Positions 2,198 to 11,175 of a DNA stretch of 11,257 bases are shown one piece after another (the first letter of the stretch is position 1; every line of letters begins with the position of its first letter). The stretch lies in the NCBI GenBank assembly GCA_031283825.1, contig JAITAZ010000224.1:1-11257 (forward strand). Reading direction: 5' to 3'. Source of the DNA: Planctomycetaceae bacterium (GTDB taxonomy: Bacteria > Planctomycetota > Planctomycetia > Pirellulales > Thermoguttaceae). Made by a program: the position numbers and the translations under genes. Under the pieces are notes generated by a model. The model ran no database searches, was not told the DNA's origin, and worked only from the letters and a program-made list of their open reading frames with translations.

Positions 2198-2387
2198 GTT
2201 ACCGTTCACGGGTTTTTAAATTCGGATTTGAATTGATAAACCCAATGTAGAGACGCAATGCTTTGCGTCTCTATCGGTGATCTTTTGATCGAACAATGAG
2301 ACGCAAGGCATTGCGTCTCTACGTTTGTTAATTTGTAATCGTTCATGTTTTAATTTTTTCGATAAAATTTTTTCCGTGAACGGTTAC
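2198..2387. repeat. Palindromic repeat element A (GTWACCGTTCACGG ends)
   Basis: A 190-bp non-coding element. It is bounded by GTTACCGTTCACGG at 2198-2211 and its inverse CCGTGAACGGTTAC at 2374-2387 (one mismatch). The interior holds two hairpins built on GAGACGCAA/TTGCGTCTC, at 2248-2273 and 2298-2319. These also pair with each other (2247-2271 with 2298-2322, one mismatch) around a loop containing GATCTTTTGATC. Positions 2237-2322 match element B at 11041-11126 with a single difference. A degenerate extra end motif, GTAATCGTTCATG, lies at 2335-2347, so the right arm looks degraded or replaced. The element fills the gap between the start of the AlbA gene and the 3' end of the hydrolase gene. 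No target-site duplication is obvious. Confidence 0.85.
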
Positions 2388-2416
2388 GAAAACTGCGACT
2401 AAATTTTTACAATCTT

Positions 2417-4759
2417 TTATTTTATTCCCCAGAAGTTTATTTTTTCTTGTTGGATTTTTACTGGGGTGATTTTTTGTTTAAGATCGTTTTCATCTTGATA
2501 CAGTATTATCTCTTGATCCTTTTTTAAGCCGAGTTCAAAAACGCCGGAAGAAATTTCCTTTATGCTTATTGATTTGTCCGATAACTTAAATTCTCCAACG
2601 AAATTTGGTTTCACTTTGCACGGCTCACCGGCTAGACTCTTGATCCTTATCCAACTTGTCTTGCCATCTTTGCGGATAGCAGTTACAAGGAACGCACCTT
2701 CCGCCCTGAAATCTCGGAATACGACGTCTTTCCACTCTGCCGAAACTGCTGGGAAAATTCTTATCACCTCACCCCAACTCTGTAACAACATTTCCTGCAA
2801 AGATTGAACCGCAACAAGCCCACACTCGACAACCGGAGAACCTTCAATATACTGCGCATTCGGCATCACAAATCGCTTCGAATTATGATGACCCCGTAAA
2901 CATCGCAACGCATTCTCTCCATCGCCCAATGTCGAATAAATCGCCGCCGCCGCCGCAAATGACCAACCAAAAATCTCACGCGATTTTTCTACCGTCAACC
3001 AATGTCCCATAGACTTCTCAACAATCTCTTTGTTCTCCGGTTGCTCTGTCGATAAAATACGCAAAGGCCAAACCATCAAAATATGAGACCAATGACGATG
3101 AGAACGTGTAAACGATAAATTACGACCAACTCGAAATCCATTTTCATCTCGCGGATAATCCACAAGATCGCGCAAAATTTCTTCCCACTGCGTGCGACGC
3201 GAATCCTTAAATTTGTACCGATCATCCAGATAAATTAACGTCGTACATGCCCATCGCAACAACGATAAATTGTAATTATTATCCGCGTCATTTCCGTACT
3301 CCGGCGAATGCAATTTCGGAAGATGTAACTTTCCGTCGTCGCCTTTGGTCAATATTTTCGAATACAAATTTACGCTCTGACGAAGCAACGGATAAAACGC
3401 ATGAGTATTCTGATCCGTAATCAACGATTCGTCCATCGAATAACGATAATGCAACCAATACAAATGCAACGCCCAAGTAAAATCACCCGGATTAATATAA
3501 CTGTCCGGCGCAAGCGTTCCATCGCCGCGCAAGCCTTCGTTGTCCGTCGTGTGAGATACCGTCGCGCAATCGTCGAACTTCCATATATCTTTTGCATTCT
3601 TGACATAATTCTCCCGATTCAAATCAATAAGACGAATAAACGATCCGCCAATCTCTAAACGATTAGCCGTATAAACCGGAAGATACGCAATCTGAATATT
3701 CAAATTCCACCAAACTCGCGGCCAACTCGTGCTACGATACCAAGGACCAAGCTCGTCAAACGGCATTCGGTCGCTACGAGTTCCAGACGCGAATTTGTAA
3801 ATTTGAATCCAGTAAAAACTCTCCACTTGAGAATCCGGCACAGACACAAAACTCTGCGGATAATAATTATGCCACCAATCACGATGCGATTTAATCAATG
3901 CCGACGTAGAAATCTTTGCGACTCTTTTTACCGTGTCCAATGCCTCGCGTTTAGAATCCGCCGAGTCGGCAGGTTGATTCGGTCGCAGGAATTTATCAGA
4001 GATTGTAAACGTTAAACGCTTTTTTATCGACTTGACAATGTCGCCCGATGAATTGTCCGCCGATTTATTTTCCGACTTGTCCGACTTATCCGCCGTTTCG
4101 TCGCTAACAATCCACGCCGAAGTAAACGAACCGCTGGCGACTCGTTTTTGTTCGCAATAGTTGATTTCATTTTCGACTCCGATTTCAGGTTTAGGATTAG
4201 GCGGAATTTTTACTTTAGCGGTTTCGTCGCGAAAAACTGCGGCGTCTTTGGGCGACCATTGGAAAGTTGCGTTTTTCTCATCGCCGATTAGTTCGAGATT
4301 GACAAGCAGAATAATTTCCGACGTATGATTTATCGCGCGAAATTTTATTGTTCCTTTATCGGTGATAATTTCGCCTTGAACTTCTGCGTTCCAAAGGTCG
4401 GTACGTAATTTGCCGGATTGAATTTTTCCCGCCGTAATCAACAAGATTCCGCCGATTGGAAGACGCGCATTATCTCGGCGATGATCCGTAACGTCTGAGC
4501 GACCGATTTCAAATCGTAGTTGATTCGGAGCGTCTTGAAAAATTGTCGTGCCGAGTAATCCATTTCCGAGAAACGCGCCGTGATCGAAATGACTCGGCAT
4601 TCTCTCCCAGACAATATCTTGTTTCGACAAAAACGACTGCCAATCGATTTCGTCGGCAACAATTATCGTTGCGCTAAATATGAATGTCGAAAATGTCGTC
4701 AACATTCCCAAAAGTAAAACCGTTAAAAAACGGCGCAAATTTTTAATTTCAATTTTCAT
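2417..4759 (-). CDS. Secreted GH95-like glycoside hydrolase (alpha-L-fucosidase-like)
   Basis: A 780-residue protein with an N-terminal signal peptide (basic residues to 10, hydrophobic core about 11-34). GH95 features follow in order: the N-terminal GAFLGNGLLGTTIF (61-74), WWNLNIQIAYLP (350-361), HLPKLHSPEYGN (479-490), SHRHWSHILMVWP (553-565) and EMLLQSWGEVIRIFPA (656-671), then a C-terminal beta domain. GH95 enzymes are (alpha/alpha)6-barrel inverting alpha-1,2-L-fucosidases or alpha-L-galactosidases acting on host or plant glycans. By motif, N352 and N354 correspond to the catalytic Asn pair, E486 to the general acid, and E645 takes the place of the usual Asp. A hydrophilic DKSDKSENKS-type linker lies near 224-240. 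No Shine-Dalgarno is seen. The gene stands alone between repeat elements A and C. Family membership is likely; substrate is unknown. Confidence 0.78.
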   Translation of the reverse strand: MKIEIKNLRRFLTVLLLGMLTTFSTFIFSATIIVADEIDWQSFLSKQDIVWERMPSHFDHGAFLGNGLLGTTIFQDAPNQLRFEIGRSDVTDHRRDNARLPIGGILLITAGKIQSGKLRTDLWNAEVQGEIITDKGTIKFRAINHTSEIILLVNLELIGDEKNATFQWSPKDAAVFRDETAKVKIPPNPKPEIGVENEINYCEQKRVASGSFTSAWIVSDETADKSDKSENKSADNSSGDIVKSIKKRLTFTISDKFLRPNQPADSADSKREALDTVKRVAKISTSALIKSHRDWWHNYYPQSFVSVPDSQVESFYWIQIYKFASGTRSDRMPFDELGPWYRSTSWPRVWWNLNIQIAYLPVYTANRLEIGGSFIRLIDLNRENYVKNAKDIWKFDDCATVSHTTDNEGLRGDGTLAPDSYINPGDFTWALHLYWLHYRYSMDESLITDQNTHAFYPLLRQSVNLYSKILTKGDDGKLHLPKLHSPEYGNDADNNYNLSLLRWACTTLIYLDDRYKFKDSRRTQWEEILRDLVDYPRDENGFRVGRNLSFTRSHRHWSHILMVWPLRILSTEQPENKEIVEKSMGHWLTVEKSREIFGWSFAAAAAIYSTLGDGENALRCLRGHHNSKRFVMPNAQYIEGSPVVECGLVAVQSLQEMLLQSWGEVIRIFPAVSAEWKDVVFRDFRAEGAFLVTAIRKDGKTSWIRIKSLAGEPCKVKPNFVGEFKLSDKSISIKEISSGVFELGLKKDQEIILYQDENDLKQKITPVKIQQEKINFWGIK

Positions 4760-4784
4760 GTTTGTTTTTGTTTGTTGTTGTTAG

Positions 4785-4805
4785 CCGGATTGATTATCGA
4801 TCCGG
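4785..4805. promoter_or_regulatory. CCGGAT...ATCCGG inverted repeat in hydrolase leader
   Basis: Six-base arms CCGGAT (4785-4790) and ATCCGG (4800-4805) flank a 9-bp spacer. They lie 26 bp upstream of the hydrolase ATG and downstream of its candidate promoter. The site could be an operator or a leader hairpin; no regulator is identified. Confidence 0.35.
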
Positions 4806-4855
4806 AAAATTGGTTAATTGTTGAAAAGCAGCCCAATGAAGCTAGATTAAATTTC

Positions 4856-4884
4856 AGTATAATCGAAGATACAAAACAAGTAAA
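4856..4884 (-). promoter_or_regulatory. Candidate sigma70-type promoter for the hydrolase
   Basis: Read on the minus strand, TTTACT (4879-4884) and TATACT (4856-4861) are separated by exactly 17 bp. They match TTGACA at 4 of 6 and TATAAT at 5 of 6 positions. This would give a leader of roughly 90 nt containing the CCGGAT inverted repeat. In AT-rich DNA such matches are common, so this is only a candidate. Confidence 0.35.
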
Positions 4885-5022
4885 CTACAGAATTAAGTTT
4901 ACAAAATAAAAATACAAAATGAAAAGTTGTAGTAGATAATTTATCAGCGGAATTTTTGTAACGTTAAATATCGTGTTGGGTAATTTACAAAAAACTTAAA
5001 CAAATTTTCAGGAGAATAAAAG

Positions 5023-5037
5023 ATGAAAAAATTGTAA
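5023..5037 (+). pseudogene. Orphan start site (MKKL-stop) cut by element C
   Basis: AGGAG at 5010-5014 stands 8 nt before an ATG at 5023, one of the best Shine-Dalgarno arrangements in the window. The frame reads only M-K-K-L and then TAA at 5035-5037. The TAA is supplied by the first bases of element C (GTAACCG starting at 5034). MKKL is a usual opening for a secreted protein. The simplest reading is a gene start whose body was displaced or deleted by the repeat element. A chance start, or a start within the element's normal flank, cannot be excluded. Confidence 0.4.
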
Positions 5038-5155
5038 CCGTTCACGGTTTTTAAAAACCATATTATTTTTTTTGGTAACCGTTCACGTTCACAAGAAAAA
5101 AATCCTACGCCCTTTCAGGGCTTAGGAAATTTTTCTCTTGTGCGTGAACGGTTAC
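5034..5155. repeat. Palindromic repeat element C (same ends, different core)
   Basis: Two direct copies of the end motif, GTAACCGTTCACGG (5034-5047) and GTAACCGTTCACG (5075-5087), are followed by the inverse CGTGAACGGTTAC (5143-5155). Between the second and third copies lies a core unrelated to that of A and B. It is a long imperfect hairpin whose arms begin CACAAGA and end TCTTGTG, with an inner TCCTA/TAGGA and a tip GCCCTTTCAGGGC. The first end motif is itself a dyad, AACCGT-TC-ACGGTT. The element encodes nothing. Confidence 0.8.
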
Positions 5156-5164
5156 TATTTTTTT
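5075..5164 (+). terminator. Possible rho-independent terminator formed by element C
   Basis: The long stem formed by 5075-5155 is followed directly by TATTTTTTT at 5156-5164, giving the hairpin plus T-run pattern on the plus strand. On the minus strand the hairpin is followed by an A-run, so it would act in one direction only. It could shield flgF from upstream transcription. The stem is much longer than a normal terminator, so the role is uncertain. Confidence 0.35.
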
Positions 5165-5193
5165 AGTTAGCGCAATTCGGCTTTTAAAGGTCG

Positions 5194-5292
5194 CGTTGCC
5201 GAAGGCAACGATAAAATGGATTCGACAATAATTAAAATCATTTCAGGTTTACCGTCGGCTAACGCCGACGCAACCTTTCGGCGAAAGGTTGC
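5194..5292. repeat. Cluster of three GC-rich hairpins
   Basis: Three perfect inverted repeats stand out in AT-rich surroundings: CGTTGCC-GAA-GGCAACG (5194-5210), CGTCGGC-TAAC-GCCGACG (5253-5270), and GCAACCTTTC-GGC-GAAAGGTTGC (5270-5292), the last two sharing one base. Their base composition differs from the flanks and suggests REP-like repeated units. The run continues into GCCTACCT, which recurs at 10210-10217. Confidence 0.7.
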
Positions 5293-5405
5293 CTACCTGG
5301 CTGGAGCAGCAAGTGCGTAACATGAGCTAATTATCTATTTTCTTTTCTGCGAAATTATTTCTTTTTGCGATGGCGTTAAATCTTTGCTATTTTTCTTATT
5401 TTTTC

Positions 5406-5433
5406 TAATGCGAATAATCATTATAACCGATAA
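5406..5433 (+). promoter_or_regulatory. Weak sigma28 (FliA)-like promoter candidate before flgF
   Basis: ACCGATAA at 5426-5433 matches the FliA -10 consensus GCCGATAA at 7 of 8 positions. TAAT at 5406-5409 could be a poor -35 (consensus TAAA), but the spacing is 16 rather than 15 bp. The site lies about 140 bp before the flgF ATG. It is a candidate for driving the flagellar cluster, not a firm call. Confidence 0.25.
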
Positions 5434-5572
5434 AGATGTACCTCGATTCGTAAACGGAATCAAAACATACCAGAAATGAAAATTACTTCCTATCGATTTC
5501 TACATCCTCAATCCTACATTATTTATCCTAACTCGTTTCCATTAACTCGGAATCCTAACCGTTAAATTTATT

Positions 5573-6370
5573 ATGTCATACGGTTTATACATTTCATCCG
5601 AAGGCGCGTTGGCGCAAGATTATAGACTCGCTGCGATCTCAAATAATATCGCTAACGTTGAAACTCCGGGATTCAAACGCGAGTTGGCAATCCAAATGGC
5701 TCGACACTCCGAATCTATCGCAATCGGAGAAATCGAACCCGATACCGGCTTAATCACAGATATCGGAGGTGGAGTTCACACTATCGGAACTTTCACCGAA
5801 TTTTCTCAAGGTCCTATCAAACCCACCGAAACTAAATCCGATCTCGCAATTCAAGGAGACGGATGGCTTCGAGTCCGAGATATGTCAAACAACGAAATTT
5901 TTCTCACTCGCGCAGGCTCTTTCCAAGTTGACCGAAACGGAACTTTTGTCGCAGAATGGGGAAGAAGCAGATTCCAACTACTAGATATCGACGGCGAACC
6001 TGTCGCTCTCGCAGACCCAAACTCAAAAACTTGGAATATCACCGACGATAACGTCCTACAAGATGTCGGCGCCGGAAGATTACAACAAATCTCAATGGTT
6101 ATGCCGACAAATTTAAGACAATTAGTTAAAACCGGAGAAAACGTTTACAGAATCGACGCACCAGAAGAACAAATTCTATACTCCGAAATCGAACCAAACG
6201 AAAGACAAAGAATAAGAGAAGGACACCTCGAAATGTCAAACACAAACCCGTCAACCGAAATGATCGAAATGATTATCGCCTCACGCGCTATCGAAACAAA
6301 CGTAAAAATGATTCAAGCACAAGACGAAGCAACCGGAAACCTTATCTCCCGCGTTTTACGAGTCGCTTGA
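5573..6370 (+). CDS. flgF: Flagellar basal-body rod protein FlgF
   Basis: A 265-residue axial rod protein exported by the flagellar type III apparatus, so it has no signal peptide. The N-terminal flagellar rod signature is at about residues 20-36 (AAISNNIANVETPGFKR). A middle FlgE/F/G-type D1 domain includes LAIQGDGWL and FLTRAGSF. The conserved C-terminal helix region starts at GHLEMSNTNPSTEMIEMI and ends with NLISRVLRV. The rod signature and the closing helix form the coiled shell of the rod. The length is usual for FlgF (about 250 residues in enterics). FlgF rather than FlgG is inferred from the lack of the FlgG-specific insertion after the N-terminal helix and from its place before flgG. 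No Shine-Dalgarno precedes the ATG. It is the first gene of the flgF-flgG-flgA-flgH run. Confidence 0.9.
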   Translation: MSYGLYISSEGALAQDYRLAAISNNIANVETPGFKRELAIQMARHSESIAIGEIEPDTGLITDIGGGVHTIGTFTEFSQGPIKPTETKSDLAIQGDGWLRVRDMSNNEIFLTRAGSFQVDRNGTFVAEWGRSRFQLLDIDGEPVALADPNSKTWNITDDNVLQDVGAGRLQQISMVMPTNLRQLVKTGENVYRIDAPEEQILYSEIEPNERQRIREGHLEMSNTNPSTEMIEMIIASRAIETNVKMIQAQDEATGNLISRVLRVA

Positions 6371-6395
6371 ACAAAATAATTTTCGTTACAATAAT
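6367..6395 (+). promoter_or_regulatory. Possible promoter overlapping the end of flgF
   Basis: TTGAAC (6367-6372) and AATAAT (6390-6395) are 17 bp apart, and each is close to a sigma70 box. The first overlaps the flgF stop codon. The same 12-mer CGTTACAATAAT found here (6384-6395) recurs before flgA (7368-7379), but without a well-spaced -35 there. Confidence 0.25.
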
Positions 6396-6436
6396 TATCC
6401 GAATTATCGCAAACACACTTAACCCTCCCGATCAAT

Positions 6437-7243
6437 ATGCCATTTCAGACTATTTATTCCTCCGGCACAGGTATGCTCGGCATGGAAAAAAAACTCAATA
6501 CAATCGCTCACAATCTTTCCAATGTCGAAACAACCGCCTACAAAAAACAACGCGTCAACTTTGAAGATTTATACTACGATAACCTCCGCTACCCGGGTTC
6601 GCAAGACGTAAACGGCGAATTCGCGGCAACAGGTATTGCAATCGGAGTCGGTACTCGCGTTACAAGCATACAAACAAATTTCTCCGAAGGCTCGCTGTCC
6701 GAAACCGGTCGCGATCTCGACGTCGCTATCACCGGTGAAGGATTTCTACAAACAAGAGACCCACTCACCGGAGAAATCTTTTATACTCGCGCAGGAAATT
6801 TAAGCGTCAACGCAAACGGATTTCTCGTCGTCGGAAGCTCGCAAACAGGACGATTACTCGAACCAGAAATCGCTGTTCCCGCAGGTGTACAAAAAGTACA
6901 AATCTCCGACGACGGCGCAGTTTACGTCGTACAAGACGGAAACGTTGACGTCCTACAATTTATCAACCGATTACAACTAGCCACTTTCATCAACCCCGAA
7001 GGCTTACTACGCGCTGGCGAAAATATGTACCGCGTAACCGAAGCATCCGGCGCGCCTGTCATAAACGATCCGGGAAGAAACGGAGTCGGAACTATAAAAG
7101 CCGGATACCTCGAAATGTCAAATGTCGCTCCTGTAATAGAACTAATCGATATGATTACTTCACAAAGAGCATACGAATTAAACAGCAAATCAACTCAAAC
7201 CGGAGACCAAATGCTACAAACCGTCATCAGCATAAAAAGGTAG
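6437..7243 (+). CDS. flgG: Flagellar distal rod protein FlgG
   Basis: A 268-residue paralogue of FlgF that forms the distal rod, the straight shaft passing through the P and L rings. The N-terminal rod signature IAHNLSNVETTAYKKQRVNF is at 23-42. It is followed by LYYDNLRYPGSQ and a glycine-rich stretch to IGVGTR (about 45-74), which corresponds to the FlgG-specific sequence that straightens the rod. LDVAITGEGFLQ and FYTRAGNLSVNANGFLV mark the D1 domain. The C-terminus has GYLEMSNVAPVIELIDMI and QRAYELNSKSTQTGDQMLQ, the usual closing helix. E. coli FlgG has 260 residues. The gene starts 66 bp after flgF with no clear Shine-Dalgarno. A 9-bp repeat array follows its stop. Confidence 0.95.
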   Translation: MPFQTIYSSGTGMLGMEKKLNTIAHNLSNVETTAYKKQRVNFEDLYYDNLRYPGSQDVNGEFAATGIAIGVGTRVTSIQTNFSEGSLSETGRDLDVAITGEGFLQTRDPLTGEIFYTRAGNLSVNANGFLVVGSSQTGRLLEPEIAVPAGVQKVQISDDGAVYVVQDGNVDVLQFINRLQLATFINPEGLLRAGENMYRVTEASGAPVINDPGRNGVGTIKAGYLEMSNVAPVIELIDMITSQRAYELNSKSTQTGDQMLQTVISIKR

Positions 7244-7251
7244 GTTTTAGA

Positions 7252-7329
7252 GTTGTATTAGTTGTAGTAGTTGTAGTAGTTGTATTAGAGTTGTAGTAGA
7301 GTTGTAGTAGTTGTATTAGAGTTGTAGTA
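7252..7329. repeat. GTTGTAGTA / GTTGTATTA 9-bp array after flgG
   Basis: Eight 9-bp units, GTTGTAGTA or GTTGTATTA, begin at 7252, 7261, 7270, 7279, 7290, 7301, 7310 and 7321. GA dinucleotides separate some of them, giving steps of 9 or 11. The array lies 8 bp after the flgG stop and 62 bp before flgA. The same units recur just after flgA. Such arrays are prone to slipped-strand length change. Confidence 0.9.
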
Positions 7330-7391
7330 GAGTTTAGATTTGGTTGTTGAATTTTTATTTTTTTTATCGTTACAATAATCCATAAAAAAGT

Positions 7392-8615
7392 ATGAAAAAC
7401 ATTTTTGTCCTATTTAGTTTTTTTTGCGTAACTCTGCCGATGACGAATTTTTTACTCGCGGCAGAAATTAAATTACGCGAACAATCATACGTCTCCGATA
7501 CGCTTGTTCGACTCGGAGACGTTGCAGACATTATCTCTAACTCTCCTCAAGAATCGACGCAACTGAAACAGACAATACTCTTTCCAACTCCTCAAAGCAA
7601 TAACTCGCGAACAATCAGCTTAACCGAAATTCGCGACTTGCTCGCTCGACTCGGAATAAACGTACTCAATCATAATTTCACCGGAGAAAAAAAAATCACA
7701 ATAATAAATCCAAATGTCAACCAAAAAAATTCAGACAATAAAATAATACAAACAAATCTAATAACAACTACAACGACAACAACTCCTAATTCAACTCCCG
7801 CGACATCGACGGCGTTAAATCAATCGTCGTCTCAATCGAATTTTCCGTTACGAAATATATCGCCCGACTTCATTAAACAAATGGAGAAAATCATCGGCGA
7901 ATCAATTCATATTTATCTTCGTCAACGCTTATCCGATAACGTGCCGTCAAATTATTATCAACAACAACCTGCTTGGAACGTTTCAGTAAAACTCACGCGC
8001 GAACAAACGCTCGTCCTTGCAACAAATGGTCAAATAAACGAAATCGAAGGCGGTAGCGAACCTCTGGTCGGAAAACAAAAATTTCAAATTAAATTGCAAA
8101 ATATCGACCCAAAAACAAATCAAAATATCGCCGTTACTGTTGAAGCCTACTTGATTCCGGTTATCAAAGGTGTCGTTGCAATTCGTAAATTGCCAAAAGG
8201 TTATATTATCGGTGAAGACGACGTTAAAATCAGCGAATGCGAAATTCCAAATACAAATAACTCGAATAAACTCGACAACTACTTTAACTCAACCGACAAC
8301 GTAATCGGAAAAGAAGTTACCGACAACATAAAAGAAGGAAATATTATTACGCAAAGCCAAATCAAAAGACCAACATGGGTTCGTAAAGGAGACGCCGTTA
8401 CGATTGTCGCAAAAAATAGCGGCGTAGTCGTCCGAACAATTGGAATCGCTAAATCAGACGGCGGAGAAGGAGACACAATTTTCGTTACAAGAATCGAACA
8501 AAATAATCAAACGTCAAAAAGACATAACCCAAAACAACCGCCAATCGAACTCGTCGCAACTGTTACTCATCCAAAAGTCGTAGAAGTAAACGCTACGCCA
8601 ATTGAAATAAAATGA
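7392..8615 (+). CDS. flgA: Flagellar P-ring assembly chaperone FlgA (SAF domain)
   Basis: A 407-residue periplasmic protein. A signal peptide (hydrophobic core 4-22, likely cleavage after LLAA at 24) precedes an N-terminal domain (25-105). A low-complexity Asn/Thr/Ser-rich linker follows, including a run of seven T residues (about 104-155). A beta domain runs to about 258. The SAF domain at 262-325 has VAIRKLPKGYIIGEDDV and VIGKEVTDNIKEGNIIT. The C-terminal FlgA barrel (328-407) has WVRKGDAVTIVAKNSGVVV. FlgA binds the P-ring subunit FlgI in the periplasm and promotes its assembly around the rod. E. coli FlgA is about 219 residues, so this one is nearly twice as long, mainly through the N-terminal part and linker. 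No strong Shine-Dalgarno is seen. The gene is flanked on both sides by GTTGTAGTA arrays. Confidence 0.88.
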   Translation: MKNIFVLFSFFCVTLPMTNFLLAAEIKLREQSYVSDTLVRLGDVADIISNSPQESTQLKQTILFPTPQSNNSRTISLTEIRDLLARLGINVLNHNFTGEKKITIINPNVNQKNSDNKIIQTNLITTTTTTTPNSTPATSTALNQSSSQSNFPLRNISPDFIKQMEKIIGESIHIYLRQRLSDNVPSNYYQQQPAWNVSVKLTREQTLVLATNGQINEIEGGSEPLVGKQKFQIKLQNIDPKTNQNIAVTVEAYLIPVIKGVVAIRKLPKGYIIGEDDVKISECEIPNTNNSNKLDNYFNSTDNVIGKEVTDNIKEGNIITQSQIKRPTWVRKGDAVTIVAKNSGVVVRTIGIAKSDGGEGDTIFVTRIEQNNQTSKRHNPKQPPIELVATVTHPKVVEVNATPIEIK

Positions 8616-8624
8616 GTGTATAAA

Positions 8625-8669
8625 GTTGTAGTAGTTGTAGTAGTTGTATTAGTTGTATTAGTTGTAGTA
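8625..8669. repeat. Perfect five-unit 9-bp array after flgA
   Basis: Five uninterrupted 9-bp units start at 8625, 8634, 8643, 8652 and 8661; three are GTTGTAGTA and two GTTGTATTA. The array begins 9 bp after the flgA stop. It matches the array after flgG in both sequence and position relative to the upstream stop codon. A TATAAT hexamer lies beyond it at 8697-8702 without a good -35. Confidence 0.92.
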
Positions 8670-8760
8670 GAGGAGATTTTTTAATACGAAAGAAATTATA
8701 ATGTTGGTTACTAATTAATTACAAACTATAACTCAACGCGATTTGCGGTTATTAACTTTT

Positions 8761-8800
8761 TTGAAAAGACTCAAGAACAACGTCTTTTGAGTCTTTTCAA
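8761..8800. repeat. 14-bp-stem hairpin between flgA and flgH
   Basis: TTGAAAAGACTCAA (8761-8774) pairs perfectly with TTGAGTCTTTTCAA (8787-8800) around a 12-nt loop. It is preceded by a T-run but not followed by one on either strand, so it is not a typical rho-independent terminator. It could act as an attenuator, an mRNA-stability hairpin or a transposon-derived palindrome. Confidence 0.7.
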
Positions 8801-8819
8801 TCAGACTTAAAACAATGAC

Positions 8820-8864
8820 GTCCTTAATGTCCCTATCGTCCTTTCTGTCCTTTATGTCCCTTAA
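8820..8864. repeat. Degenerate GTCCYTWAT 9-bp array before flgH
   Basis: Five 9-bp units run end to end: GTCCTTAAT, GTCCCTATC, GTCCTTTCT, GTCCTTTAT and GTCCCTTAA. The array ends 43 bp before the flgH ATG. It has the same period as the GTTGTAGTA arrays but a different sequence. An inverted single copy, TTAAGGGAC, is at 11183-11191, just outside element B. Confidence 0.75.
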
Positions 8865-8907
8865 AAAAACTACGCCAGAATAATTACTTTTACTTTATTT
8901 TAATAAA

Positions 8908-9609
8908 ATGAAAAAACTATTTCCATCAATTAAGATTTTATTCGTAACGATAATTTTATCGTATTTGATTTTTTGTAACGATAATGTTTCGTTGGCTCAA
9001 TATGGCTCTCTTTCTGGCTCTACGACATTGCGAGTCGGCGAAGGGCGACCTCTCACGATGGCTGAAGGTTCGGAGTTATACAGACCTGCGCCGCGTCAAA
9101 AGGCGTTTCAATTGCATGACATCGTTTATGTCAACGTGAAAAAGAAATGGAATTACACCAACAATGCGACTCTCACGAAAACGAAAAAAGTCGAGGCGGA
9201 AGCGCGATTAACATATTGGTCGAAGTTCAAAGGTTTATTCAAAATGCCGACAAGTGCAGCCGGTCAAGCGTTGCCCGAAATCGGCGGAGAGATCGATCAC
9301 AAAACTCAAAATAAAGGGAATATGACTCAAGCGGAGACAATTGAATTTATCATCGCTTGTGAAATAGTTGACGTTTTAGAAAACGGCAATTTACACATCG
9401 AAGGAACTATTTCAACGCAAATCGGCGAAGAGGGCAAAGTCATGTATGTCGGCGGATTCATTCGACCAGAAGACATTGCGCCGGATCACAGCATTTCCGG
9501 CGACAAAGTCCTACACTTCAAGTCAACCGACATCCCAAGCGGACAAATCTACGACACCCAAAGAAGACCATGGGGAACAAGAATAATTGAACAATTAAAA
9601 CCAATGTAA
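8908..9609 (+). CDS. flgH: Flagellar L-ring protein FlgH
   Basis: A 233-residue outer-membrane ring protein that forms the bushing around the rod. An N-terminal export signal with hydrophobic core IKILFVTIILSYLIF occupies residues 8-22. Family features include FQLHDIVYVNVKKKW (near 67-81), KGNMTQAETIEF, the VLENGNLHIEGT segment (enteric pattern VLPNGNL.I.G) and VGGFIRPEDIAPDHSISGDKV near the C-terminus. The length matches E. coli FlgH (232 residues). FlgH is usually a lipoprotein, but here the only candidate Cys (C23) is preceded by L-I-F, not a good lipobox; SLA before QYG offers a signal peptidase I site near residue 31. No Shine-Dalgarno precedes the ATG. flgI, often the next gene, is not found downstream in this window. 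Confidence 0.9.
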   Translation: MKKLFPSIKILFVTIILSYLIFCNDNVSLAQYGSLSGSTTLRVGEGRPLTMAEGSELYRPAPRQKAFQLHDIVYVNVKKKWNYTNNATLTKTKKVEAEARLTYWSKFKGLFKMPTSAAGQALPEIGGEIDHKTQNKGNMTQAETIEFIIACEIVDVLENGNLHIEGTISTQIGEEGKVMYVGGFIRPEDIAPDHSISGDKVLHFKSTDIPSGQIYDTQRRPWGTRIIEQLKPM

Positions 9610-9639
9610 AACAAAAACGCAGAAAATTACTATTCTTTT

Positions 9640-10164
9640 ATGAAAATTATTGTTGGCATAACCGGCGCAAGCGGCAGCATTTATGCAGTTTCACTTTTAC
9701 GGGAATTATCACGGCGAGAAGTCGATGTTTACGGTGTTTGCAGTCAAACCGGTCAAGAAGTAATGCAATCAGAATGCGGCGTTAGCTCAATTGATTTTCC
9801 ATCGGTGATTTGGAATAAACCTGATGATATGTTTGCGTCAATTGCAAGCGGGACATGTTGCGCCGACGCAATGATAATATCGCCATGTTCGATGAATACT
9901 TTATCATGCGTCGCTCATGGAATTTCAAATAATCTATTACAACGCGCGGCGGCAGTTATGTTAAAAGAATCGCGTAAATTAGTCGTAGTTCCTCGCGAAA
10001 CGCCGTTGAGTATTATTCATCTGGAAGCAATGCTAAAACTTGCCAATGCCGGCGCTATAATCCTGCCGGCAACTCCGGGTTTCTACAAACAACCAAAATC
10101 AATTCAAGACCTAGTAGATTTCATAACAGAACGAATATTACAGATAATAAATCCGACAACATGA
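9640..10164 (+). CDS. ubiX: UbiX-family flavin prenyltransferase
   Basis: A 174-residue cytosolic flavoprotein that joins a dimethylallyl group to FMN to make prenyl-FMN, the cofactor of UbiD-type decarboxylases. The FMN-binding start is GITGASGS (6-13). SPCSMNTLSCVAHGISNNLL and the family signatures RETPL (119-123) and GFYKQP (147-152) follow. R102, K109, E120, Y149 and R165 all sit at a constant offset of 20 from the Pseudomonas UbiX active-site residues R122, K129, E140, Y169 and R185, so the enzyme should be active. It starts 30 bp after flgH on the same strand, so co-transcription is likely though the functions are unrelated. No Shine-Dalgarno is seen. A UbiD partner is not in the window. 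Confidence 0.95.
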   Translation: MKIIVGITGASGSIYAVSLLRELSRREVDVYGVCSQTGQEVMQSECGVSSIDFPSVIWNKPDDMFASIASGTCCADAMIISPCSMNTLSCVAHGISNNLLQRAAAVMLKESRKLVVVPRETPLSIIHLEAMLKLANAGAIILPATPGFYKQPKSIQDLVDFITERILQIINPTT

Positions 10165-10184
10165 TAAATAATTGTAATTATTCA

Positions 10185-10215
10185 GTAGGGAATAATCCCT
10201 GATCAGGTCGCCTAC
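10185..10215. repeat. Nested palindromes between convergent ubiX and coaE
   Basis: Outer arms GTAGG (10185-10189) and CCTAC (10211-10215) enclose the hairpin AGGGA-ATAA-TCCCT (10187-10200), which overlaps the perfect palindrome CCTGATCAGG (10198-10207). These alternative pairings lie in the 80-bp convergent gap, where a two-way terminator would be useful, but no T-run follows. GCCTACCT at 10210-10217 is shared with the hairpin cluster at 5291-5298. Confidence 0.5.
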
Positions 10216-10244
10216 CTAATCGATTATTATTTACCGCTGAATCG

Positions 10245-10895
10245 TTACAGTTTTTTTATCAACGATATAATCTGATTTTTTGTATCGTCGATAGTTTTGT
10301 CGTTGACAATTATGAAATCTGCGCGTTTTCGTTTTTGGTCGATTGGCAATTGAACGGATTCGCGTAAAGTTAGATCGTTTTCTGTCCAGTTTCGTTTGAG
10401 TATTCTTACGATTCGGTTTTCTCTGGATGATTCTATGAAAATAATTTTGTCCGTAATTTTATCAAAACCTGTTTCTAATAAGAGCGGGGCATCGAGAATT
10501 ATTAAATTATTCGCGTTTTGAGATTGTTGATAAATTTTACAATTGGTTTGATCAGAACAGAAATTATTTTGCGAGAATAATCGTATTTTTTCGTCTATGA
10601 TTTTAGAGATTCGAGGATGAATAATCGAATTAAGATATTTGAGTCCGGCTAATCCTTCTTCGGTTTGCTCGAAAACAATATGAGCAAGTTCTGAACGATC
10701 AATACAATCAACGCCGTCTATATTGCGAAAAACTTTTTCACCAAAAAATGACCGAATCTGTTTTGATATTGTTTCCTCTGAAAGCAAATCATGACCGATT
10801 TTATCAGCGTCAATCAGTTTTGCCCCAAGTTCTGCAAACAGTTTTGCAACCAAACTCTTACCGCAACCAATTCCTCCAACTAATCCTAATATCAT
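10245..10895 (-). CDS. coaE: Dephospho-CoA kinase
   Basis: A 216-residue P-loop kinase that phosphorylates the ribose 3'-hydroxyl of dephospho-CoA, the last step of coenzyme A synthesis. The Walker A motif GGIGCGKS is at 7-14. LIDADKIGHDLL (27-38) holds the substrate-binding Asp residues, and IHPRI is at 92-96. DAPLLLETG (135-143) is the family's core strand and loop. RESVQLPIDQKRKRADFIIVN (178-198) carries the conserved lid and C-terminal R, Q, AD and N residues. Compared with enteric CoaE (206 residues), a polar Asn/Gln/Cys-rich insertion lies near 109-130. No Shine-Dalgarno is seen. The gene converges on ubiX, and repeat element B begins only 34 bp upstream of its start, so its promoter is probably within or across the element. 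Confidence 0.95.
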   Translation of the reverse strand: MILGLVGGIGCGKSLVAKLFAELGAKLIDADKIGHDLLSEETISKQIRSFFGEKVFRNIDGVDCIDRSELAHIVFEQTEEGLAGLKYLNSIIHPRISKIIDEKIRLFSQNNFCSDQTNCKIYQQSQNANNLIILDAPLLLETGFDKITDKIIFIESSRENRIVRILKRNWTENDLTLRESVQLPIDQKRKRADFIIVNDKTIDDTKNQIISLIKKL

Positions 10896-10929
10896 CGCGT
10901 TTTTTGGATATTCAAGGTTTAAAAAATAA

Positions 10930-11175
10930 GTAACCGTTCACGGTTTTTTAAATTCTGAATTATGTAATATTAGTCGGAAAATTTATTTTGGATTTTGCGT
11001 TGTAACAATTTATTAGGGACTTTTAGCGTTTTTACATTGCTAAACCCAATGTAGAGACGCAATGCTTTGCGTCTCTATCGGTGATCTTTTGATCGAACAA
11101 TGAGACGCAAAGCATTGCGTCTCTACATTGGGTTTAGCAATTCAAATCCGAATTGAAAAACCCGTGAACGGTTAC
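10930..11175. repeat. Palindromic repeat element B (GTAACCGTTCACGG ends)
   Basis: A 246-bp non-coding element bounded by GTAACCGTTCACGG (10930-10943) and its exact inverse CCGTGAACGGTTAC (11162-11175). Its core contains a perfect 40-bp inverted repeat, 11036-11075 with 11102-11141, around a 26-nt loop that includes GATCTTTTGATC. The core matches element A over 86 bp with one difference. The left end keeps the first 29 bp of the arm (three mismatches), but 77 bp of unrelated AT-rich DNA (10959-11035) then stands where 5 bp would be expected, so the left arm looks interrupted by about 72 bp. The remaining 82 bp of the window hold only a lone TTAAGGGAC (11183-11191) and no gene. Confidence 0.88.

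What the first reader, a model, noticed from the sequence alone, without database searches (positions are those of the whole stretch)
2198..11175. One terminal motif, interchangeable cores: a MITE- or REP-like repeat family
Elements A (2198-2387), B (10930-11175) and C (5034-5155) all begin with GTWACCGTTCACG and end with its inverse. A and B share a core built on GAGACGCAA palindromes, while C carries an unrelated hairpin core tipped GCCCTTTCAGGGC. The end motif is itself a short dyad (AACCGT-TC-ACGGTT in two copies) and occurs in extra or degenerate form inside A (2335-2347) and C (5075-5087). Shared ends around different interiors suggest an enzyme, encoded elsewhere, that recognises only the ends, or modular recombination among palindromes. 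GAGACG-type palindromes are known from several other bacterial groups; the combination with these ends is what looks unusual.
Basis: partly seen in the sequence, partly recalled or inferred. Interest (0 to 1): 0.7.

Follow-up and report, generated by a model that had tools for sequence, protein, structure and literature searches.

The report
Jumping mini-elements with swapped cores
Three repeats in this planctomycete DNA belong to a family of hundreds of tiny passenger transposons that share the ends of one known transposase group (IS66) but carry different middles, at least one of which also exists as a separate repeat in related species; a useful case of how such passengers diversify, though of a known kind.

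Summary
A (2198-2387), B (10930-11175) and C (5034-5155) have GTWACCGTTCACG ends in inverted orientation; the motif occurs 709 times in the window's 3.46-Mb draft genome, the reversed control 0 times. They are MITEs with IS66-type ends: three full-length single-gene IS66 transposons in the same order end in exactly this 13-mer. Flanking 8-bp duplications are exact in 8 of 48 pairs against 0.09 expected, 0 at lengths 3-7 and 9-12. One filled site has two paralogous empty copies with the duplicated 8 bp present once. The 49 sampled elements show several core classes, and one arm is joined to different cores. The A/B core is built of two copies of a 28-bp palindrome that stands outside such ends in 17 of 17 loci read in six other genomes of the genus, so this core was probably captured. 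Two elements contain another MITE with its own 4-bp duplication. No cognate transposase was found in this genome (73% complete) or in the other high-copy genome, G017. A, B and C themselves lack an 8-bp duplication. The REP/Y1 option is not supported.

The parts
2198..2387 (.). Element A, 190-bp MITE: arm, GAGACG core, second arm; no 8-bp target duplication recognisable
2198..2210 (+). left terminal repeat of A (GTTACCGTTCACG)
2375..2387 (-). right terminal repeat of A
2335..2347 (+). degenerate inner end in the right arm of A; similar degenerate ends lie in the equivalent arm of other copies
2248..2322 (.). GAGACG core of A: two copies of a palindrome that stands alone in other genomes of the genus
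5034..5155 (.). Element C, 122-bp composite: end and arm plus a nested small element sharing the right end
5048..5073 (.). arm of C, in other copies joined to a GGGGAC core
5075..5155 (.). 81-bp hairpin element with both ends and CCCTTTCAGGG core
10930..11175 (.). Element B, 246-bp MITE; no 8-bp target duplication recognisable
10930..10942 (+). left terminal repeat of B
11163..11175 (-). right terminal repeat of B
11052..11127 (.). GAGACG core of B

Best explanation
A, B and C are non-autonomous miniature transposons (MITEs). An IS66-type transposase of the single-gene group to which ISAs21 belongs would cut and move DNA lying between two inward-facing GTAACCGTTCACG ends, making an 8-bp AT-rich target duplication, and copies survive between genes. 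Shown: the ends, the 8-bp duplication and the identity with ends of IS66 elements in relatives. Inferred: that little beyond the 13-mer is needed, because complete elements of 52 and 53 bp have perfect duplications. Since only the ends matter, the interior is free to change by deletion of the IS, nesting of other elements, recombination between arms and capture of independent palindromes. Nesting is shown in two elements and capture of the GAGACG palindrome is the best reading of its distribution; the molecular step is inferred. The transposase that built the copies is not in the assembled part of this genome and was probably lost, left unassembled or supplied from elsewhere (inferred).
For: 709 exact ends in the genome, 0 reversed. 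Exact 8-bp duplications in 8 of 48 pairs, 0.09 expected; 10 of 87 pairs with looser ends, 0 at lengths 6, 7, 9 and 10. Paralogous empty sites for L012:2263-2654 in L126 and L128. Three single-gene IS66 elements with exactly these ends in relatives, two of other families and one of the same family. The right end (up to 2 mismatches) lies within 200 nt of the transposase match in 14 of 17 family- and order-level and 7 of 20 same-genus loci, against 3.8% of random positions. Four plasmid IS66 relatives examined, of 254 records with a match, ISAs21 among them: ends beginning GTAA with 1-4 mismatches to the 13-mer, and exact 8-bp repeats in 4 of 4, borders chosen by best joint score. IS66 remnants with both ends in the genus: L212 (395 bp) and L063/L264 (727 bp), both without duplication. 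0 of 49 elements inside an ORF of 100 aa or more against 64% of random placements; 8-bp flanks 88% AT against 54% in the sample. GAGACG palindrome not enclosed by such ends in 17 of 17 loci of six other genomes. One arm followed by GGGGAC in 22, an inner end in 8, the right terminus in 4 and other DNA in 2 of 36 places (counted from its listing, one duplicate row dropped).
Against: A, B and C differ at 6, 7 and 5 of 8 flank positions, and 40 of 48 pairs lack an exact duplication. No cognate transposase was found in this genome or in G017, the two genomes of the genus with most ends; this genome has one 51-position IS66 relic. 21 of 96 ends are solitary. Four of six full-length IS copies of relatives show no duplication. 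One 514-bp pair in G017 has an exact 10-bp instead of 8-bp flanking repeat. Upstream of coaE, where B lies, G017 has a lone degenerate end (2 mismatches), so B's site may not be a recent insertion. The draft consists of short contigs, so chimeric joins inside repeats are possible.
Confidence: 0.88

Rival explanations
1. REP/BIME-like palindromes spread by a Y1 (RAYT-type) single-strand transposase.
For: The elements are strong hairpins; the genome has one Y1_Tnp gene; GTAG-tagged REPs are reported from Planctomycetes (PMC3733652, passages); the free-standing palindrome begins GTAG.
Against: Exact 8-bp target duplications and exact identity with IS66 ends; the Y1 gene lies between other hairpins and its 2.2-kb locus has no end motif with up to 2 mismatches.
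Confidence: 0.04
2. The apparent core exchange is mostly an artefact of assembly that joined different repeat copies; the real elements are a few fixed families.
For: 709 like ends in 689 contigs; 25 of 96 ends lie within 300 bp of a contig end against 12% expected; 40 of 48 pairs lack a duplication.
Against: The 8 elements with perfect duplications already span mini, GAGACG, GGGGAC and ACGGAT types; G017, G011, G013 and GTDB records show other interiors with duplications.
Confidence: 0.12
3. Non-mobile structured sites (protein-binding sites or RNA hairpins) kept by selection and spread by recombination.
For: No element of 49 inside an ORF; the six folded stretches are far more stable than shuffles.
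Against: 8-bp duplications, a filled and empty site pair, and counts from 0 to 709 within one genus.
Confidence: 0.03

Closest known systems
IS66 family, single-transposase group (ISAs21 and relatives)
   Same: GTAA-starting ends close or identical to the 13-mer and 8-bp target duplications
   Different: These elements carry no transposase; the 49 sampled are 39-354 bp
MITE of Cardinium derived from an IS982-family element (PMC9769881, passages); MITEPsy1 (PMC3189936, passages)
   Same: Transposase-less elements with the inverted ends of an IS
   Different: The Cardinium MITE has 169 copies with its parent IS present, and MITEPsy1 is a 100-nt element in a few copies; here hundreds of copies, many interiors, and no parent found in the genome
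GTAG-tagged REPs (PMC3733652, passages)
   Same: Short palindrome starting GTAG, as in the captured core
   Different: The whole elements have IS66 ends and 8-bp duplications; the one Y1 gene found is not linked to these ends

Membership tests
MITE of an IS66-type transposon | No transposase gene inside | tested here: met
   No ORF of 80 aa or more overlaps A, B or C
MITE of an IS66-type transposon | Terminal repeats identical to those of an IS with an intact transposase | tested here: met
   L021, L022 and L023 have the exact 13-mer at both ends of an open IS66 transposase gene
MITE of an IS66-type transposon | 8-bp target duplication, family as a whole | tested here: met
   8 of 48 exact, 0.09 expected; one filled/empty comparison
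MITE of an IS66-type transposon | 8-bp target duplication at A, B and C themselves | tested here: not met
   6, 7 and 5 of 8 positions differ; their membership rests on ends, arms and cores shared with copies that have it, such as L015:229-436 and L089:3104-3298
MITE of an IS66-type transposon | Cognate transposase in the same genome | tested here: inconclusive
   None for PF03050 or P0001, one 51-position relic for NF033517; assembly 73% complete
MITE of an IS66-type transposon | Interior derived from the parent IS by deletion | tested here: inconclusive
   Transposase fragments between both ends in L212 and L264 of the genus; the cores of A and B match another repeat
MITE of an IS66-type transposon | Moved by the transposase in an experiment | not testable with these tools
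   -
REP / RAYT system | Y1 transposase gene flanked by the same repeat | tested here: not met
   Locus L298 of the one Y1 gene found has no end motif with up to 2 mismatches

The most novel reading that the evidence does not exclude
IS66 ends act as an open vehicle: by landing around, or recombining with, other short palindromes they turn repeats that are immobile or moved by something else into IS66 passengers, so that species carry their own sets of cores between the same 13-bp ends, amplified by a transposase that need not be resident in the genome.
Probability: 0.4. Interest if true: 0.65.

Novelty: new variant of a known kind. Interest (0 to 1): 0.52.

Why it matters
It gives a natural series for how MITE interiors diversify: elements of about 52 bp, IS66 remnants with both ends, nested elements, and a palindrome seen both alone and enclosed. 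It suggests that a very short end is enough to define a mobile unit and that copy number can reach hundreds without a detectable parent IS. The ends are also enriched at contig ends, so such families help fragment assemblies.

Tried and rejected
Orthologous empty sites for A, B and C. flgF/flgG regions of the genus and flgH/ubiX/coaE regions of five genomes were fetched. Upstream of flgF, where C lies, G008, G017 and G020 have no end motif (up to 2 mismatches) in the fetched locus, but the intergenic DNA is too diverged beyond about 100 bp to align a breakpoint. Upstream of coaE, where B lies, G020 has no such end in its locus on that side and G017 has a lone degenerate end near the same place with no partner before its contig ends about 200 bp on; inconclusive. 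For A no orthologous site was sought.

Paralogous empty sites: 16 joined flank pairs were searched against all fetched loci. Five gave hits across the junction; only L012 is clear. L004, L011 and L016 are weak and have imperfect duplications, and L020 found itself.

Rfam: five hits, all below their gathering scores, to microRNA and plastid families; read as chance matches to hairpins. No mini-element pattern in viral contigs; no plasmid match to B. A first scan for transposase ends read minus-strand loci the wrong way round and is replaced. In one search I gave 20 of the 30 loci, leaving out those whose match stops short of the C-terminal part, and 17 of the 22 family- and order-level loci. 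Of the five left out, one (L055) shows an end with 2 mismatches anywhere in its locus.

Whether elements without duplications are recombinants was not tested by matching flanks between copies: chance matches in AT-rich flanks would swamp it.

Literature (listings): IS66 with MITE and terminal inverted repeats, IS66 with miniature inverted (58), miniature inverted-repeat with Planctomycetes (31), IS66 family with 8-bp and GTAA (46), MITE/hairpin/core (61), the string GTAACCGTTCAC (64, no paper), ISAs21 (78), termite gut Planctomycetes (47, 77). None of the listings showed a description of this family. Passages only were read of PMC3733652, PMC3281130, PMC9769881, PMC3189936, PMC4853749 and PMC9137090. 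Subscription papers are mostly not held.
Full report
Observation. A and B share a 99-nt block at 95% identity. C is a composite: a complete 81-bp hairpin element (5075-5155) preceded by an end and an arm (5034-5074). No ORF of 80 aa or more overlaps the three.

Genome scale. The window is contig 81 of a 3.46-Mb draft in 689 contigs, 73% complete. The motif occurs 341+368 times, the reversed control 0 times. Of 60 genomes searched, this one included, 41 have it; in the genus counts run from 0 to 709, with 611 in G017. A GTDB scan for two ends 18-48 bp apart gave 21 stretches from Planctomycetota, Desulfobacteraceae and other deltaproteobacterial, Nitrospirae, WOR-3 and Paraflavitalea records; the 19 genomes behind them, chosen because they match, hold 2 to 611 ends. 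By equal counts and size, MAG Im510_bin130 is taken to be G017 and Ncb351_bin97 to be G004 (inference); both are titled Planctomycetaceae bacterium. The habitat was not established.

Borders. In 60 evenly spaced contigs (296 kb) 96 ends have at most 1 mismatch. 63 have an inward partner within 400 bp when the partner may have 3 mismatches, 12 more are cut by a contig end, 21 are solitary; the outward control is 13. Among 48 testable pairs of 81 contigs, exact flank repeats number 8 at length 8 (0.09 expected from shuffled flank pairs), 0 at lengths 3-7 and 9-12, and 4 at length 2 (2.6 expected). With looser ends and non-adjacent pairs it is 10 of 87 at length 8 and 0 at 6, 7, 9 and 10. Twenty stretches of G017 give 12 pairs, 3 exact at 8 bp and one 514-bp pair with an exact 10-bp repeat instead. 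Thirty motif loci from seven genomes of the genus (G017 among them) give 7 pairs, two of them one element seen twice and one untestable, with 2 exact. The GTDB loci give 28 pairs, 5 exact. The 392-bp element L012:2263-2654, with AATTTATT on both sides, has two paralogous empty sites, L126 and L128, carrying AATTTATT once. A, B and C have no such duplication.

The enzyme. In relatives six elements of 1.35-1.56 kb lie between such ends, three with the exact 13-mer and three with 1-2 mismatches. The transposases of the three exact ones score above the NF033517 cut-off and match PF03050. Of the six, two have exact 8-bp duplications and four do not. The right end, up to 2 mismatches, lies within 200 nt of the transposase match in 14 of 17 family- and order-level and 7 of 20 same-genus loci, against 3.8% of random positions (rows left out are listed under Tried and rejected). 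Several same-genus copies carry a different end, GTAACTATTCAGT. ISAs21 and three cyanobacterial plasmid elements have related ends and exact 8-bp repeats; these borders were found by best joint score. This genome has no PF03050 or P0001 match and one short NF033517 relic. In the genus 13 of 21 genomes have some NF033517 match, 2 of 21 above the cut-off.

Cores. Forty-nine elements of 39-354 bp, some nested in others, fall by eye into mini, CCCTTTCAGGG, GAGACG, GGGGAC and ACGGAT types with mixed forms. In the even sample cores lie between two inward ends in 11 of 15 places (GAGACG), 9 of 21 (CCCTTTCAGGG), 8 of 26 (GGGGAC) and 6 of 21 (ACGGAT), against 2% of random positions; two further repeats are mostly outside (GGTCGC 1 of 18, GGGAAC 1 of 14). 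The GGGAAC repeat is another MITE: in the two elements that contain it whole it has an exact 4-bp ATTT duplication. The GAGACG core has hits in 12 of 21 genomes of the genus, with 66 and 82 hits (both strands; only 40 candidates scored) in G007 and G006, which have 2 exact ends each. Twenty of those loci, taken from the top of the list, were read. The 17 in G006, G007 and G017-G020 have no end pair enclosing the palindrome (in L294 a pair lies nearby but beside it); in G004 two of three are inside ends as in A. So the palindrome probably became cargo in the lineage of this genome and G004. The arm of C leads into GGGGAC in 22, an inner end in 8, the right terminus in 4 and other DNA in 2 of 36 places.

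How it works. Shown: IS66 ends, 8-bp duplications, AT-rich targets (flanks 88% AT against 54%), no element of 49 in an ORF against 64% of random placements, nested elements. Inferred: recognition needs little beyond the 13-mer, since a 52-bp and a 53-bp element have perfect duplications (L020, L015); cores change by deletion, nesting, recombination and capture; the transposase acted in trans and is lost, unassembled or elsewhere.

Novelty. MITEs and IS66 are known. This is a new variant because of the copy number without a detectable parent, the very small size and the captured cores that differ between species. No description was found in the searches listed under Tried and rejected.

Noticed in passing
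L109:1673-2000, L012:4752-5084: A second MITE family, GGGAACTTCTAAAAACC to GTTTTTAGAAGTTCCC, about 130 bp, with exact 4-bp ATTT duplications where it is nested in the IS66-type elements.
   Followed up: partly
L250, L255, L258, L265, L273 (and L254 with a variant): A related end type, GTAACTATTCAGT, lies next to IS66 transposase relics in the genus.
   Followed up: no
L278-L294: 28-bp palindrome GTAGAGACGCAATGCATTGCGTCTCTAC and close variants standing without the ends in six genomes of the genus, several times inside other repeats; what moves it is unknown.
   Followed up: partly
L298:327-668 (G000 contig 277): Y1 transposase gene between other inverted hairpins, a RAYT-like arrangement.
   Followed up: partly
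window 7248-7330 and 8620-8670: GTTGTAGTA / GTTGTATTA short tandem repeats after flgG and after flgA.
   Followed up: no
window 5186-5297: GGTCGC-type palindrome block directly after C, an independent repeat of the genome.
   Followed up: no
L133, L134, L136, L144, L147, L148: In deltaproteobacterial and WOR-3 records the interiors look like degenerate repeats of the end itself (read by eye).
   Followed up: no
L197:2093-2105 (G017 contig 5): A lone degenerate end 24 bp upstream of coaE in G017, close to where B lies in the window.
   Followed up: partly
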